Below are positions 7,104-28,174 of a stretch of 28,191 bases of DNA, one piece after another. Position numbers and translations under genes: made by a program. The DNA is from a virus, in the IMG/VR virus record IMGVR_UViG_3300027917_000149, positions 1 through 28,191 of that record; one strand, given 5' to 3'. The notes beneath the pieces were generated by a model that was not told where the DNA came from, did no database searches, and saw only the letters and a program-made list of their open reading frames with translations. Within the stretch, counting starts at the first letter, position 1, and every line of letters begins with the position of its first letter.

Positions 7104-8488
7104 TGGAAAAGATTGAATACCTGATTCTCAGGAACCTTATATTTAATGAAGATTACTTAAAAAAAGTTCTTCCTTTTATTCATGAAGAATATTTTCAGGA
7201 CAAGGATCAAAAAGTATTGTTTTTAATTATTAAAAAATTTGTTGATGAATATAGTAAACAACCAACAAAAGAAATACTTTCTATTGAAACTGAAAACCGT
7301 GGTGATTTAAATGAAGATGAATTTAAGACCATCATTCATCTTATCAACTCTTTTGAAGAAGTTGATGTTGAATTTGGATGGTTAATTAATACTACGGAGC
7401 AGTGGTGTAAAGACCGTGCTCTTTTTAATTCGATTATGGAGGCAGTTAATCTTTACGAATCTAATAAAGATAGAGGACTAATTCCAACCAAGATACAAGA
7501 TGCATTAGCAGTTAGTTTTGACAGCAGTATTGGACACGATTACTTAGAAGACACTGAAGAAAGATATGAATTTTACAATACTAAAGAGGAGAGGATTTCT
7601 ACTGGCATTGAACTTCTTGACAAAATTTATGACGGGGGGTTTGCTCGTAAAACTCTTAATATCGCGCTTGCTGGTACTGGCGTCGGCAAGTCTCTATTCA
7701 TGTGCTGTGTGGCTAGCTCCGTCTTGCTCTCAGGGAGGAACGTACTCTACATTACAATGGAAATGGCAGAGAAAAAGATTGCTCAGAGAATTGACGCAAA
7801 TTTAATGAATGTTGACATTAAAGAACTTAAAAAACTCCCTAAGTCAAAGTTTCAAAACAAAGTTAATAGTTTACAACAAAAAACTAATGGAAAACTTATA
7901 ATTAAGGAATATCCTACTGCATCTGCTCATGCAGGTCATTTTAGAAATCTTCTTAATGATTTGGCGCTTAAAAAATCATTTTATCCTGATATTGTCTTCG
8001 TTGATTACCTTAACATTTGTGCTTCCTCTCGGTATAGGGCAGGAAGTAACGTTAATACTTATACTTATATCAAAGGAATTGCTGAAGAAATTAGAGGGCT
8101 CGCCGCAGAATTCAATGTACCTTTCGTTTCAGCCACTCAAACTACTCGGAGTGGTTCTATTAGCTCTGACCCTGACCTTACTGACACTAGTGAGTCCTTT
8201 GGACTCCCTGCTACTGCTGATACTATGTTTGCCCTTATTAGCAGTGAACAACTGGAAGAACTTGGACAGATAAAAGTAAAACAACTTAAGAATCGTGATG
8301 GTGATTTGAATTACTATAGAACCTTCTGTGTGGGGGTTGACAGATCCAAGATGAGGTTGTATGATTTGGAGGAGTCTGCACAAGTAGGACTTTCTGATTC
8401 TGGGCAGAATCTTGATGTGGAGTTTAATTTTGGGGAGAAGACAACATCTAAAATGAAAGAAAAGTTTGGAGGATTTGATTTTGAATAG
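7103..8488 (+). CDS. 41: Replicative DNA helicase, T4 gp41/DnaB-like
   Basis: Predicted hexameric 5'-3' helicase that unwinds DNA at the fork and works with gp61 primase. The protein is 461 aa. The N-terminal helical domain (1-145) is followed by a RecA-type core with Walker A GTGVGKS (191-197), the ITMEM segment (217-221) and Walker B PDIVFVDYLN. The C terminus ends FGGFDFE. ATG at 7103 overlaps the oxygenase stop (TGATG); a TTG at 7100 is a less likely start. The last 150 nt carry a promoter (8337-8365) and the ribosome-binding site of the next gene. Confidence 0.96.
   Translation: MEKIEYLILRNLIFNEDYLKKVLPFIHEEYFQDKDQKVLFLIIKKFVDEYSKQPTKEILSIETENRGDLNEDEFKTIIHLINSFEEVDVEFGWLINTTEQWCKDRALFNSIMEAVNLYESNKDRGLIPTKIQDALAVSFDSSIGHDYLEDTEERYEFYNTKEERISTGIELLDKIYDGGFARKTLNIALAGTGVGKSLFMCCVASSVLLSGRNVLYITMEMAEKKIAQRIDANLMNVDIKELKKLPKSKFQNKVNSLQQKTNGKLIIKEYPTASAHAGHFRNLLNDLALKKSFYPDIVFVDYLNICASSRYRAGSNVNTYTYIKGIAEEIRGLAAEFNVPFVSATQTTRSGSISSDPDLTDTSESFGLPATADTMFALISSEQLEELGQIKVKQLKNRDGDLNYYRTFCVGVDRSKMRLYDLEESAQVGLSDSGQNLDVEFNFGEKTTSKMKEKFGGFDFE
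8337..8365 (+). promoter_or_regulatory. Sigma70-type promoter inside the end of gp41
   Basis: TTGACA at 8337-8342, exactly 17 nt, TATGAT at 8360-8365. It has the same form as six other sites in the window. Transcription from about 8372 would express the 8481 gene, mazG and the 9375 gene apart from the helicase, ending at the 9521 terminator. Confidence 0.65.
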
Positions 8489-12667: not shown

Positions 12668-15490
12668 ATGTCATCCAATATCGCTAAAGATCTTTATGAG
12701 GCATATCTTAATGAGATGGAACCTCAGTTAGGTAAGAAGAAAGAAGGTGGTAGTGAAGGTGGTGGAGTATCCTCACCTGACGAAGCTGCTGCTAAGAGAA
12801 TCCGTCAGGCAGTTTACGACATTAGATATCGTGCAAGAAGAGAAGATATCGATGTAAGTCAGGCATATTCTCAATATATGTCTAATACCTCAATGGCAGC
12901 AAATGAGAAATCTGCTGTTAGAGATAAACTGGGTCTTGGCACTGGTGGACAAGCAGGTGGACAAGCAGAAGAATTTGAGTATGTTGATGAGGATGCAAAA
13001 CCAGGAGAGCGTTATCTCCGTGTTAAACCTCAAAGAGGAACAGGTGAAAAGGAGTATGTAAGAAAATTTGATCCTAAAAATCCTCTTCATCGTCAAAAAG
13101 CGGCAAGATTGAGAGCAAAAGGTATTTCTGCAACTCAAACAAGTCATGGTGATCCTTATGATATGGATCATTCAAAAGGTGCTGGTGAAAAGTATGAGAA
13201 AAAGTATGGTCCAGCAAATGGTAAAAATACAAAAGGTGATCTTGACAAAGATGGAACAGTAGAACCAGATCGTCATGAGTATGCTGGTGTGAAGGATAAG
13301 GCCATCAAGAAAGCGATGGCAAAGAAAGGAACTAAGAAAGAATCTTTCTCCGATTGGAGAGAAGAGATTCGTGAAGTAGTTGAAAAGGCAAATGCCATCA
13401 AACAAAAAGATGATCAGATCAAAGAAAAAGCAGTTCATAATACAATCAAAGTAAATCCTGACATTCCCATCAAGGAACTCGCAGATAATCTCGGTGCAGA
13501 ACTTGTAGAATCTGTTGATCTTGGTGAAGATTTTGAAGAGATGGTTGCAGACTATGCAACTGAGTATTTCTTTGCTGAGGGTTTGAATGAGAATGGAATC
13601 GACATTCTGATTGAAGACATCGGTGTTGATGACTTTGTTGATTATGTTTTAGATCTGTTTGAAGAGTTTGAAGAGGAAGTTCTTACTGAAGCAAGAAGAA
13701 GTGGTCGTATTGAACCAACTACAAAAACTGGAAAGGATGTTGGATCATTAAAGGGTGGTGCAAAAACAGCAGCAATTAAGCGTCTTCGTGGCGAAAAGGC
13801 AAAGAGAAGAGAAGCAGAAGCATCTGCATCTGCAGAAAAACCATCCGGATTGACTGCTGCACTTAAGAGTCAGTCTGAAAAAGCAAAAGTTGCTAAGGGT
13901 CTGAAGAAAGCATCAACTGAGAAAAAAGTTGAAAAAGCAAAGGCAGCACAAGCACCTGCTGCGAATAAGTCATCTGAAGGAACTAAGAAGGAGGTTAAGA
14001 AGGGAATTCTCGGTGCAATCAGAGACAGAGCAGCAAAAGACACTGAGCAACTCAAGAAGTCTTGGCAGACTGCTAGAGAAGTTGGTAAGAAGCATGAGAG
14101 AAACGTAGCAAGAGCAGCAGGAACTGCTGCTGGAGTTGCTGTTGGTGCTGCTAAGGCAGTTCATCGTGCTGGTCAGGAAGCAGGTAGGAGTGAGGCAGGT
14201 AAGAGAGTTAAGGCAACTCTCTCAAAGGCAGGTAAAGCTGCTGCTGCAGGTGCTGCTGCTGGTGCTAAGAAAGGTGAAACCAATACCGCAGCAGGTCGTG
14301 CAGGTCGTGCAGTTGGAACCTTTATTAAAAAAATGAAGGAAGATTATGAACTCTGGATTGATGAACTGATTGATGAGGGTTACGATGTATGGGAGTATGA
14401 TGAGTTTTATCTCGTCGAAACTTATCTTCCGGAAGATCTCGATGAGGGACTTGGAACTGCTTTGAGAGGAATGCTTACCTCAAGAAGTCAGAAGGAAAGA
14501 GTTGCTGCTGCCAAAGAAAGAATGGCAAAGCATCGTGAAGCAATGGCAAAAGGAGAAACTTCTCCTTATGTTGCTCAGAGAAAGAAACCATCAACTCCAA
14601 TCAAAAAACCAAACACTTCTGCAAGAGATCCTTGGTCAGGTAATCCCGAGACTGACAAAGCATGGGCAAAGAGATCAGCATCAACCCCTCATGCATACAA
14701 AGGAACTCACGAAGAGTTTGAAGAGTGGATGGAAGCAATTCTTGCCGAAGGACTTGATATTGATGAGAATATGCTCTTCCTGATTTATGAATCAAGTCTT
14801 GCTGAAGAAATGATGGTCATTTCTGAAAAGGTTGAAATGGATGGTGTTGACGATAACGGCAATACAAAATGCTGGAAAGGTTATGTTAAAAAAGGCACTA
14901 AAGTAAAGGGTGGTAAGGAAGTTAACAACTGTGTGAAGGCAGAGGAAACAAAACTTGATTCTATTATTTCTCGAATAAGAGATACTGAAGAAGTTGATGA
15001 GGGTGTAGCATCTGCTGCTAGAGTTGCTGGTAAATTGGCAATGAGAGCACTTACATCAAAAGCAGCAAAAAAAGCTGCTAAGAAGGTTGGTAAGTCAGCA
15101 CTTGCTGGTGCTACTGCTGGTGCTGCAGAGAGAGCGGGAGAAGCTGCTTACGACACTACAAGAAACATTGGTAAAAAGAAAGAGACTGAATGTGAAGAGT
15201 TTGTTAGTGAACTGAATCGTTATGAAAAAGAAACTGGTAAAGATTACAGAACTGGAAAAAAATCAACTCCAGGAGGAACTTGGAAAGATGATCCCGTAAT
15301 GAAGCATATGAATAAAGTAATGGGTAGTAGTAGAATGGGAGTTCAACCAAGGGGCAAAAAGAAAGTTCCTGGTCAAAAACCACCTGCTGCTGGTGAATAC
15401 GGTGGTCCAATGTCCCCTGCACAAAAAGTTGCAAGGCGTCGTGCCAATGCTCAAAGAGCAATAGATAATATGTCTTCAAGATTTGATTGA
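12668..15490 (+). CDS. Very large modular head/scaffold-like protein (940 aa)
   Basis: Probably a prohead-core or internal virion protein. It alternates acidic helical modules containing EG(Y/L/I) with basic Ala/Lys-rich segments. Acidic modules: about 285-340 (ATEYFFAEGL, YVLDLFEEFEE), 558-595 (WIDELIDEGYDVWEY), 682-722 (EEWMEAILAEGLDIDE). Basic histone-H1-like segments: about 360-555 and 780-840, with runs such as AAGTAAGVAVGAAKA and KAAKKAAKKVGK that could bind DNA. There is a DLDKDGTVEP loop at 191-200 and a two-Cys segment KCWKGYVKKGTK at 734-745. Gp21-type sites (L-x-E) occur at 14-16, 339-341, 692-694 and 711-713. It shares the N-terminal LYEAY motif and module type with the 577-aa protein at 22476. 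It follows a TATAAATA promoter. The call as a head protein is inference from composition and context. Confidence 0.7.
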   Translation: MSSNIAKDLYEAYLNEMEPQLGKKKEGGSEGGGVSSPDEAAAKRIRQAVYDIRYRARREDIDVSQAYSQYMSNTSMAANEKSAVRDKLGLGTGGQAGGQAEEFEYVDEDAKPGERYLRVKPQRGTGEKEYVRKFDPKNPLHRQKAARLRAKGISATQTSHGDPYDMDHSKGAGEKYEKKYGPANGKNTKGDLDKDGTVEPDRHEYAGVKDKAIKKAMAKKGTKKESFSDWREEIREVVEKANAIKQKDDQIKEKAVHNTIKVNPDIPIKELADNLGAELVESVDLGEDFEEMVADYATEYFFAEGLNENGIDILIEDIGVDDFVDYVLDLFEEFEEEVLTEARRSGRIEPTTKTGKDVGSLKGGAKTAAIKRLRGEKAKRREAEASASAEKPSGLTAALKSQSEKAKVAKGLKKASTEKKVEKAKAAQAPAANKSSEGTKKEVKKGILGAIRDRAAKDTEQLKKSWQTAREVGKKHERNVARAAGTAAGVAVGAAKAVHRAGQEAGRSEAGKRVKATLSKAGKAAAAGAAAGAKKGETNTAAGRAGRAVGTFIKKMKEDYELWIDELIDEGYDVWEYDEFYLVETYLPEDLDEGLGTALRGMLTSRSQKERVAAAKERMAKHREAMAKGETSPYVAQRKKPSTPIKKPNTSARDPWSGNPETDKAWAKRSASTPHAYKGTHEEFEEWMEAILAEGLDIDENMLFLIYESSLAEEMMVISEKVEMDGVDDNGNTKCWKGYVKKGTKVKGGKEVNNCVKAEETKLDSIISRIRDTEEVDEGVASAARVAGKLAMRALTSKAAKKAAKKVGKSALAGATAGAAERAGEAAYDTTRNIGKKKETECEEFVSELNRYEKETGKDYRTGKKSTPGGTWKDDPVMKHMNKVMGSSRMGVQPRGKKKVPGQKPPAAGEYGGPMSPAQKVARRRANAQRAIDNMSSRFD

Positions 15491-27566: not shown

Positions 27567-27714
27567 AGAAGCACTTGACAAAGCGTATTCGGACATGATA
27601 AAAAGTTTATTTCAAAATTATGTTTTGGATCAAGACTTCAATAAGTTAAAGAGAGGTTTGACACATCTTAAAAAATCAAGAGATACCGTCTCAGATCTCC
27701 TTCAAGGGGGTTGA
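27550..27714 (+). CDS. 54-aa hypothetical protein
   Basis: Overlaps the previous gene by 17 nt. Reads MDQQDKEALDKAYSDMIKSL then FQNYVLDQDFNKLKRG and ends DLLQGG; helical. Similar short EALDKAY...FQNYVL proteins are found in cyanophages, by my recollection. Its stop overlaps the -35 of the tRNA promoter, so the gene abuts the tRNA array. Function unknown. Confidence 0.66.
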   Translation: MDQQDKEALDKAYSDMIKSLFQNYVLDQDFNKLKRGLTHLKKSRDTVSDLLQGG

Positions 27715-27739
27715 CATCCCAGAGATCTTGTGGTATTCT
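27711..27739 (+). promoter_or_regulatory. Sigma70-type promoter of the tRNA array
   Basis: TTGACA at 27711-27716, 17-nt spacer, TATTCT at 27734-27739, preceded by TGG (extended -10). Overlaps the end of the 54-aa gene. Start expected near 27746, 30 nt before tRNA-Tyr. Confidence 0.8.
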
Positions 27740-27775: not shown

Positions 27776-27857
27776 GGGTAGGTGTCCGAGTGGTTAATGG
27801 AAACGGACTGTAAATCCGTCGGCTCCGCCTTCGGGGGTTCAAATCCCTCCCTGCCCA
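27776..27857 (+). tRNA. tRNA-Tyr (GTA)
   Basis: 82-nt type II tRNA. Acceptor GGGTAGG with CCTGCCC (one G-U), anticodon stem ACGGA/TCCGT with loop CTGTAAA and anticodon GTA at 27810-27812, long variable arm GGC-TCC-GCC, T arm GGGGG-TTCAAAT-CCCTC, discriminator A. The gene gives CC but not the final A of CCA (next base T). A long variable arm is expected for bacterial tRNA-Tyr. Confidence 0.96.
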
Positions 27858-27862
27858 CCTTA

Positions 27863-27934
27863 GGGTCTGTAACTCAATGGTAGAGTAACGGGCTTTTAAC
27901 CTGGAAGTTGTGGGTTCGAGTCCCACCAGACCCA
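27863..27934 (+). tRNA. tRNA-Lys (TTT)
   Basis: 72 nt. Acceptor GGGTCTG/CAGACCC, D stem ACTC/GAGT, anticodon loop CTTTTAA with anticodon TTT at 27895-27897, T arm GTGGG-TTCGAGT-CCCAC, discriminator A; CCA is not encoded. It reads AAA/AAG, and Lys AAA is heavily used in this window. The anticodon stem has an A-G mismatch at its base. Confidence 0.95.
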
Positions 27935-27935
27935 T

Positions 27936-28018
27936 TGCCGTGGTTCAAACCTTATGATAGAATCCAGTGGGGCATCTGTCGGACAGGTTTGATTTAGATT
28001 CACAACCACACGGCACCA
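27936..28018 (+). ncRNA. Structured tRNA-sized element ending in CCA, not a standard tRNA
   Basis: An 80-nt element between tRNA-Lys and the next promoter. Its ends pair perfectly, TGCCGTG (27936-27942) with CACGGCA (28009-28015), and are followed by CCA. Internally CAAACCT (27946-27952) pairs with AGGTTTG (27985-27991). GAATC (27960-27964) in the enclosed loop can pair with GATTC (27997-28001) outside it, a possible pseudoknot. No D arm, anticodon arm or T arm can be drawn, so it is not a normal tRNA. T4 encodes two small stable RNAs of unknown function in its tRNA cluster; this may be a comparable RNA or a tRNA decay product. No start codon-led frame fits. Confidence 0.5.
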
Positions 28019-28019
28019 C

Positions 28020-28048
28020 TTGACAATCAAATCCTTTTGTGGTATGAT
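28020..28048 (+). promoter_or_regulatory. Second sigma70-type promoter within the tRNA array
   Basis: TTGACA at 28020-28025, 17-nt spacer, TATGAT at 28043-28048, preceded by TGG (extended -10). It begins 2 nt after the CCA of the structured element and drives tRNA-Arg and what follows. Confidence 0.8.
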
Positions 28049-28055
28049 TGTCTCA

Positions 28056-28077
28056 TCGGTCCTCTACCGAACTCGGT
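28056..28077 (+). promoter_or_regulatory. Mutually exclusive leader hairpins before tRNA-Arg
   Basis: TCGGT (28056-28060), ACCGA (28066-28070) and TCGGT (28073-28077): the middle segment can pair with the left one (loop CCTCT) or with the right one (ACCG/CGGT, loop AACT), but not both. An outer CCTC (28061-28064)/GAGG (28087-28090) pairing favours the right-hand form. Confidence 0.5.
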
Positions 28078-28097
28078 GAACTAAGTGAGGATCTTTT

Positions 28098-28174
28098 GTC
28101 TCAGTAGCTCAGTTGGATAGAGCATCTGCCTTCTAAGCAGTTGGTCGGGGGTTCAAGTCCCTCCTGAGACGCCA
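28098..28174 (+). tRNA. tRNA-Arg (TCT), CCA encoded
   Basis: 77 nt with CCA. Acceptor GTCTCAG/CTGAGAC, D stem GCTC/GAGC, anticodon stem CTGC/GCAG with loop CTTCTAA and anticodon TCT at 28132-28134, T arm GGGGG-TTCAAGT-CCCTC, discriminator G, then CCA at 28172-28174. It reads AGA/AGG; AGA is the dominant Arg codon in many genes here. Confidence 0.96.

What the first reader, a model, noticed from the sequence alone, without database searches (positions are those of the whole stretch)
27936..28018. An 80-nt structured RNA ending in CCA sits inside the tRNA array but is not a recognisable tRNA
Seen: perfect 7-bp terminal pairing (TGCCGTG/CACGGCA) followed by CCA, an internal 7-bp pairing (CAAACCT/AGGTTTG), and a GAATC/GATTC pairing that would cross it as a pseudoknot. 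The element is tRNA-sized and lies between two true tRNAs, with its own boundaries set by tRNA-Lys and by a promoter that begins 2 nt after CCA. It lacks D, anticodon and T arms. Known: T4 carries two small stable RNAs of unknown role in its tRNA cluster. Inferred: a cyanophage stable RNA processed by host tRNA enzymes at its CCA end. A decayed tRNA is the main alternative, but the compensated stems argue against random decay.
Basis: partly seen in the sequence, partly recalled or inferred. Interest (0 to 1): 0.66.

Follow-up and report, generated by a model that had tools for sequence, protein, structure and literature searches.

The report
Structured RNA gene in cyanophage tRNA arrays
Between the tRNA genes of this cyanobacterial virus lies an 80-base RNA gene that is not a tRNA; about 100 virus contigs carry it with the same folded shape, one close set of virus isolates gained or lost it in an RNA-only cassette, and it often sits next to a known RNA antitoxin, which makes it a good candidate for an RNA the virus uses against host defences.

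Summary
The element is real and is not a tRNA or the relic of one. It is an 80-nt RNA gene (27936-28015, +) of a family that matches nothing in Rfam. I found 101 copies in 100 records (52 distinct sequences): three isolated cyanomyoviruses of different groups, where it is unannotated, and IMG/VR contigs. None was found in GTDB genomes or plasmids. A terminal helix P1 and a rod P2-P3 are supported by compensatory changes (11 pairs changed on both sides; 96% of cells paired, against 30-40% when partners are slid). The encoded CCA is nearly unique to this copy (2 of 101). The GAATC/GATTC pseudoknot is not conserved; a loop/joint complementarity (GUGGG/YUCAC) is kept in every copy but could be chance (14% of shuffles). 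Copies abut tRNAs of at least eight specificities or follow promoter-like sequences. In phage S-RIM8 the element lies in a 325-nt protein-free cassette present in one isolate and absent from near-identical ones. Orphan abiF RNAs (an RNA-antitoxin family), without a detectable toxin gene, sit in the same arrays. Best reading: a trans-acting phage RNA that binds a host protein, most likely a counter-defence decoy or antitoxin. The family is well established; the function is inferred.

The parts
27936..28015 (+). 80-nt structured non-coding RNA element (whole gene, model R1)
   Evidence: R1 score 102 bits, E 1e-26 (the window copy is one of the rows the model was built from); alignments A2/A3
27936..27942 (+). 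P1 5' strand (TGCCGTG); first base not always paired
   Evidence: P1 97% of cells paired, two pairs with changes on both sides
28009..28015 (+). P1 3' strand (CACGGCA); last A invariant even where the pair is broken
27945..27952 (+). P2 5' strand
   Evidence: five of eight pairs with changes on both sides
27985..27992 (+). P2 3' strand
27956..27961 (+).
   Evidence: two of its pairs rank first among all column pairs by mutual information; 99% paired
27975..27980 (+). P3 3' strand (TCTGTC)
27962..27974 (+). L3 apical loop with near-invariant CAGTGGGGC
27993..28008 (+). J2/1 joint, near-invariant ATTTAG..TCACAA (the leading T pairs in P2); its TTCAC (27999-28003) can pair with GTGGG of L3 (27967-27971), in the same molecule or another
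   Evidence: 100% of cells pair in all copies, but 14% of column shuffles do as well
27711..27739 (+). sigma70-like promoter TTGACA-N17-TATTCT ahead of tRNA-Tyr, tRNA-Lys and the element
   Evidence: read from sequence
27776..27859 (+). tRNA-Tyr(gta)
27863..27934 (+). tRNA-Lys(ttt), no encoded CCA; one base separates it from the element
28020..28048 (+). promoter TTGACA-N17-TATGAT directly after the element
   Evidence: read from sequence; TTGAC within 8 nt downstream in 54 of 101 copies
28058..28093 (+). second small hairpin element, in the slot where related phages carry abiF RNA; not itself an abiF match
   Evidence: fold -14.1 kcal/mol, z -1.7; shared with L022; no RF03085 match at E<=10
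28098..28174 (+). tRNA-Arg(tct)

Best explanation
It is a phage gene for a small structured RNA that acts in trans. Shown: a conserved fold of a short closing helix (P1), a rod P2-P3 of about 14-17 bp whose base-paired sequence is largely free to vary, and near-invariant unpaired segments (GU at positions 8-9, apical loop CAGUGGGGC, 3' joint AUUUAG..UCACAA). Inferred: the 5' end is set by 3' trimming of the upstream tRNA or, in some copies, by a promoter starting at P1; the 3' end is set by exonuclease trimming up to P1 or by RNase P cutting at the next tRNA. Inferred: the invariant loop and joint are docking surfaces for a host protein. The most likely role is counter-defence: an RNA decoy or orphan RNA antitoxin that keeps a host ribonuclease or other toxin inactive, in the way orphan abiF RNA in the same arrays is expected to act. 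I put the RNA family at about 0.95, action in trans at about 0.8, and the counter-defence role at about 0.4.
For: RNA gene: 101 copies, 52 distinct sequences. Covariation: 11 pairs with changes on both sides, 77 such cells against 27 in shuffles, 96% paired against 30-40% slid. An unbiased scan of column pairs ranks P3 pairs first. L126 and a second copy in L132 replace the rod by a different or extended, fully paired 17-bp helix. It does not look protein-coding: copies differ by single-base indels. Trans action: it is followed by a promoter box (54 copies) or by a tRNA within 12 nt (28), not by one conserved gene, and it abuts at least eight kinds of tRNA; contig L132 has two copies. Exchangeable cargo: in S-RIM8 a 325-nt insert with no annotated protein gene, between tRNA-Thr and tRNA-Ala, occurs in one isolate and not in others with 99.8-100% identical flanks. 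Counter-defence by association: abiF RNA (RF03085) lies in the same arrays in 12 of 27 tested IMG/VR records carrying the element, often in the next slot, and no Abi_2 toxin gene is found in any of 31 records; abiF RNA neutralises its toxin by direct binding (PMC12373285); phage TE escapes ToxIN with a pseudo-ToxI RNA (PMC5086642).
Against: No expression data. No toxin or other partner is identified, and no host homologue was found. The abiF neighbourhood is association only, and the other 15 of the 27 IMG/VR records tested, as well as S-RIM8, S-RIM32 and DSL-LC03, show no abiF match. The presence of the element does not follow the isolation host in S-RIM8: two isolates named for WH8101 differ in it. 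A type III antitoxin is usually a repeat array next to its toxin; this is a single unit. Many records are fragments, so absence of a toxin gene is weak evidence.
Confidence: 0.45

Rival explanations
1. Trans-acting RNA that binds a host or phage protein for a purpose other than counter-defence (for example RNA polymerase, an RNase or the translation apparatus), as a phage sponge or regulator.
For: Same structural evidence. The many copies show long-term maintenance. Non-defence auxiliary genes and regulatory RNAs (wcaG) occur in the same phages.
Against: Patchy presence among close relatives fits an accessory, host-dependent role better than a core regulatory one.
Confidence: 0.22
2. Processing or stability element of the tRNA array: a folded spacer that guides RNase P, RNase Z or exonuclease cuts for neighbouring tRNAs.
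For: Starts -1 to 2 nt after the tRNA end in 73 copies; 28 have a tRNA starting within 12 nt downstream.
Against: Some copies have no upstream tRNA and start directly after a promoter-like site (L045, L049, L100). Most tRNAs in the same arrays have no such spacer. A spacer would not need invariant loops.
Confidence: 0.12
3. Base-pairing regulatory RNA that uses the invariant loop GUGGGGC or the joint UCACAA against host or phage mRNAs.
For: Invariant unpaired segments.
Against: Not tested against targets here. The loop and joint are complementary to each other in every copy, so they may be occupied.
Confidence: 0.1
4. Cis-acting element such as a terminator, antiterminator, riboswitch or ribozyme at the end of tRNA units.
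For: Often the last unit before a new promoter box (54 copies).
Against: 28 copies have a tRNA starting within 12 nt downstream and no one gene follows consistently; no U-tract; no Rfam riboswitch or ribozyme match of any weight.
Confidence: 0.08
5. Decayed tRNA with accidental pairings.
For: tRNA size, two-base linker after a 7-bp end helix, CCA in this copy.
Against: Fold and loops conserved in 52 distinct sequences with compensatory changes; CCA not conserved; no tRNA arms.
Confidence: 0.01

Closest known systems
abiF RNA (RF03085), RNA antitoxin of the AbiF/Abi_2 HEPN toxins
   Same: Small structured RNA carried without a detected toxin gene in the tRNA arrays of the same cyanophages, often in the neighbouring slot
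   Different: 37 nt, different fold and sequence; the element does not match RF03085, and no partner toxin is known
T4 stable RNAs C and D (species 1 and 2)
   Same: Non-tRNA small RNAs in the tRNA cluster of a T4-superfamily phage
   Different: 139 and 119 nt; RNA C keeps a T-arm-like sequence and RNA D ends in CCA; model R1 finds nothing in the T4 genome at E<=10
ToxI / pseudo-ToxI (type III antitoxin RNA and its phage mimic)
   Same: Possible mode of action: phage-borne RNA mimic that blocks a host toxin (PMC5086642)
   Different: Repeat of 34-36 nt folded as a pseudoknot (PMC12373285, PMC5772629); here a single 80-nt unit with an unproven loop-joint pairing
wcaG and manA RNAs of cyanophages (RF01761, RF01745)
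   Same: Structured RNAs of cyanophages, unknown mechanism (PMC2864571)
   Different: Proposed cis-regulators upstream of genes; no match to the element in Rfam

Membership tests
tRNA | Cloverleaf with D, anticodon and T arms | tested here: not met
   No ARAGORN call, no RF00005 match at the element even at E<=10; conserved fold is a single rod closed by P1
tRNA | CCA end | tested here: not met
   Encoded CCA in 2 of 101 copies; CCA added after transcription is not testable here
T4 RNA C / RNA D | Homology in sequence and structure | tested here: not met
   R1 finds nothing in the T4 genome at E<=10
T4 RNA C / RNA D | Stable RNA accumulating in infected cells | not testable with these tools
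   needs Northern blot or small-RNA sequencing
abiF RNA (RF03085) | Match to the covariance model | tested here: not met
Type III RNA antitoxins | Tandem repeats next to a toxin gene | tested here: not met
   Single unit between tRNAs; no Abi_2 gene in 31 records; other toxin families were not searched
Type III RNA antitoxins | Folded pseudoknot bound by a toxin | tested here: inconclusive
   Loop-joint complementarity in all copies, chance 14%; binding not testable
Any Rfam 15 family (ribozyme, riboswitch, tmRNA, 6S and so on) | Covariance-model match | tested here: not met
   the only sub-threshold match overlapping the window copy is permuted tmRNA, 10.8 bits, E 5.8

The most novel reading that the evidence does not exclude
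Cyanophage tRNA arrays act as islands for RNA-only counter-defence genes. This 80-nt RNA is a widespread member: an orphan RNA inhibitor of an unknown cyanobacterial defence toxin, exchanged between phages in protein-free cassettes together with orphan abiF RNAs, odd tRNAs and several further small structured RNAs.
Probability: 0.35. Interest if true: 0.85.

Novelty: new variant of a known kind. Interest (0 to 1): 0.62.

Why it matters
Here is an unrelated RNA family in the same kind of place with strong covariation, a natural presence/absence set of isolates (S-RIM8), and a neighbour (orphan abiF RNA) whose mechanism is known. That makes the question 'what do extra RNAs in phage tRNA clusters do?' directly testable, and suggests that anti-defence functions carried by RNA rather than protein may be overlooked because annotation of these regions lists only tRNAs.

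Tried and rejected
Rfam at permissive thresholds on three copies: only chance matches. CCA-end processing: rejected as a family feature. Host link in S-RIM8 (isolate name WH8101): rejected, since a second WH8101-named isolate lacks the element. Two collection scans used a pattern mis-spaced by one base; repeated correctly. Plasmids: no match. Loop-joint pseudoknot: kept as possible only; 14% of column shuffles give as good a helix, and in copies with a continuous 17-bp rod (L126, L132) the 5-6 nt linkers look short for an intramolecular pairing, so pairing between molecules, or none, is as likely (own inference). The promoter-like sites before the L049-type copies overlap the end of an upstream ORF, and L057 lacks a good -35, so they are called promoter-like only.

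Full report
What is in the sequence. At 27936-28015 on the + strand lies an 80-nt element. One base separates it from tRNA-Lys (27863-27934), and four bases (CCAC) separate it from the -35 box of a promoter (TTGACA 28020-28025, N17, TATGAT 28043-28048). ARAGORN and Rfam do not call it. Alone, it folds at -29.1 kcal/mol, z -3.5.

It is a conserved family. BLAST of the element finds S-RIM32, S-RIM8 and DSL-LC03, three cyanomyoviruses of different groups, at 81-90% identity, with no annotation under the match. Pattern scans of IMG/VR bring the total to 101 copies in 100 records, 52 distinct sequences, all on stretches that hold at least one tRNA. The count depends on the patterns used, so it is a lower bound. 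An exact but degenerate pattern finds none in one genome for each of 84,980 prokaryote species, and BLAST finds none in plasmids. A covariance model built from the family (R1) finds the element only in the three known isolates among twelve phage genomes, T4 included.

Structure. P1 (columns 1-7/74-80), P2 (10-17/50-57) and P3 (21-26/40-45) pair in nearly every copy. On the 47-row alignment, 96.1% of cells pair, against 30-41% when partners are slid by 1-3 columns; 75 cells have changes on both sides, against 27 in shuffles. With the most divergent copies added, 11 pairs show changes on both sides. That second alignment is fitted to the model, so it leans towards the structure; the first, made by MAFFT, does not. 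Ranking all column pairs by mutual information puts two P3 pairs first. In L126 the rod has a different sequence, and in the second copy of L132 it is extended; both are continuous 17-bp helices with the same loops. Seven diverse copies fold alike. The unpaired parts are the most conserved: GU at columns 8-9, CAGUGGGGC in the loop, AUUUAG..UCACAA in the 3' joint. One subfamily has GA opposite GA in the middle of P2, which could form tandem sheared pairs (read; inference).

What fails. GUGGG of the loop and YUCAC of the joint are complementary in all copies, including one where G-U becomes A-U (L047), but 14% of column shuffles give such a helix, so it stays open. CCA follows the element in only 2 of 101 copies.

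Setting. Seventy-three copies start between -1 and 2 nt after a tRNA end, and the upstream tRNAs have at least eight specificities. Several of the other copies sit near contig ends or after degenerate tRNAs. A group of copies instead follows TTGAC...TAAAAT-like sequences placed so that transcription would start at P1; in L100 the site differs (TTGACA-N17-TATTAT) and appears independent. In the L049 type these boxes overlap the end of an ORF, so they are promoter-like only. Downstream there is either a tRNA within 12 nt (28 copies) or a TTGAC box within 8 nt (54). In the window, the order read from the sequence is promoter (27711-27739), tRNA-Tyr, tRNA-Lys, element; then a new promoter, a small hairpin (28058-28093) and tRNA-Arg.

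Gain and loss. Megablast of the S-RIM8 region shows that only KX349286 covers it in full; the other S-RIM8 records and KBS-M-1A match both flanks at 99.8-100% and lack the middle. Comparison with six of them gives an insert of exactly 325 nt between tRNA-Thr and tRNA-Ala. It holds a leader-like stretch, an odd tRNA-like gene, the element, and a further small element; no protein gene is annotated in it. A protein-free block that phages gain or lose whole suggests that its RNAs are the cargo (inference).

Neighbours and function. abiF RNA (RF03085) occurs in 12 of 27 tested IMG/VR records with the element, often between the element and tRNA-Arg, and in S-CREM1, which lacks the element; none of the 31 records tested has an Abi_2 toxin gene. 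abiF RNA neutralises its HEPN toxin by direct binding (PMC12373285); a phage escaping ToxIN did so with a pseudo-ToxI RNA (PMC5086642). The arrays hold further recurrent non-tRNA elements. I therefore propose a trans-acting RNA with invariant docking surfaces on a variable rod, most likely a decoy or antitoxin against a host defence protein. The family and fold are shown; expression, ends, partner and role are inferred.

Novelty. No Rfam family matches. Extra RNAs in phage tRNA clusters are a known kind (T4 RNA C and D), and abiF RNA in a cyanophage has been reported (PMC9964418). This family, its fold and the cassette behaviour did not turn up in the papers searched; the library holds only open-licence papers.

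Noticed in passing
L045, L046, L049, L051, L091, L094, L100, L103, L104, L109, L112 and others; also S-CREM1: Orphan abiF RNA (RF03085, RNA antitoxin) inside cyanophage tRNA arrays with no Abi_2 toxin gene found in the record.
   Followed up: partly
window 28058-28093 and L022: Small hairpin CGGTCCTCTACCGAACTCGGTGAACTAAGTGAGGA between promoter and tRNA-Arg, in the slot where others have abiF RNA.
   Followed up: partly
L002, L061, L062, L063, L076: Another recurrent stretch of about 80 nt, GGGTAYAACAAGGAACGTTGTATTAAAT...ATCGTAGATTATCGTRG...GCCC, beside tRNAs; looks structured.
   Followed up: no
L004:3083-3135, L063, L078, L123, L054, L064: Recurrent element of about 53 nt, GATAGAGGGTAAGYCWCTGTTATATCC..GAGGTATATYACRCTTACTCCATC, in the same arrays.
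   Followed up: no
L050, L082, L096, L101; and L057, L060, L077: Two further leader-like stretches after tRNA-array promoters (AACTGCGRCACTCYCCTTC... and AAGTCCTCTAACACTT...).
   Followed up: no
L004:2927-3000, L003:2926-2998 and 34 other loci: Odd tRNA-like gene called tRNA-Leu(CAA) or unknown, about 73 nt and without the long variable arm expected of tRNA-Leu; in several loci directly upstream of the element.
   Followed up: no
L005:2374-2563, L007:2809-2994, L056:882-1071, L083:6336-6525: Group I intron (RF00028) that appears to interrupt a phage tRNA-Leu (the sequence breaks at CCAGACTT), just downstream of the element; L056 also has a cyanobacterial tmRNA match at 7596-7848.
   Followed up: partly
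L132:9395-9473 and 12809-12888: Two diverged copies of the element in one contig.
   Followed up: yes
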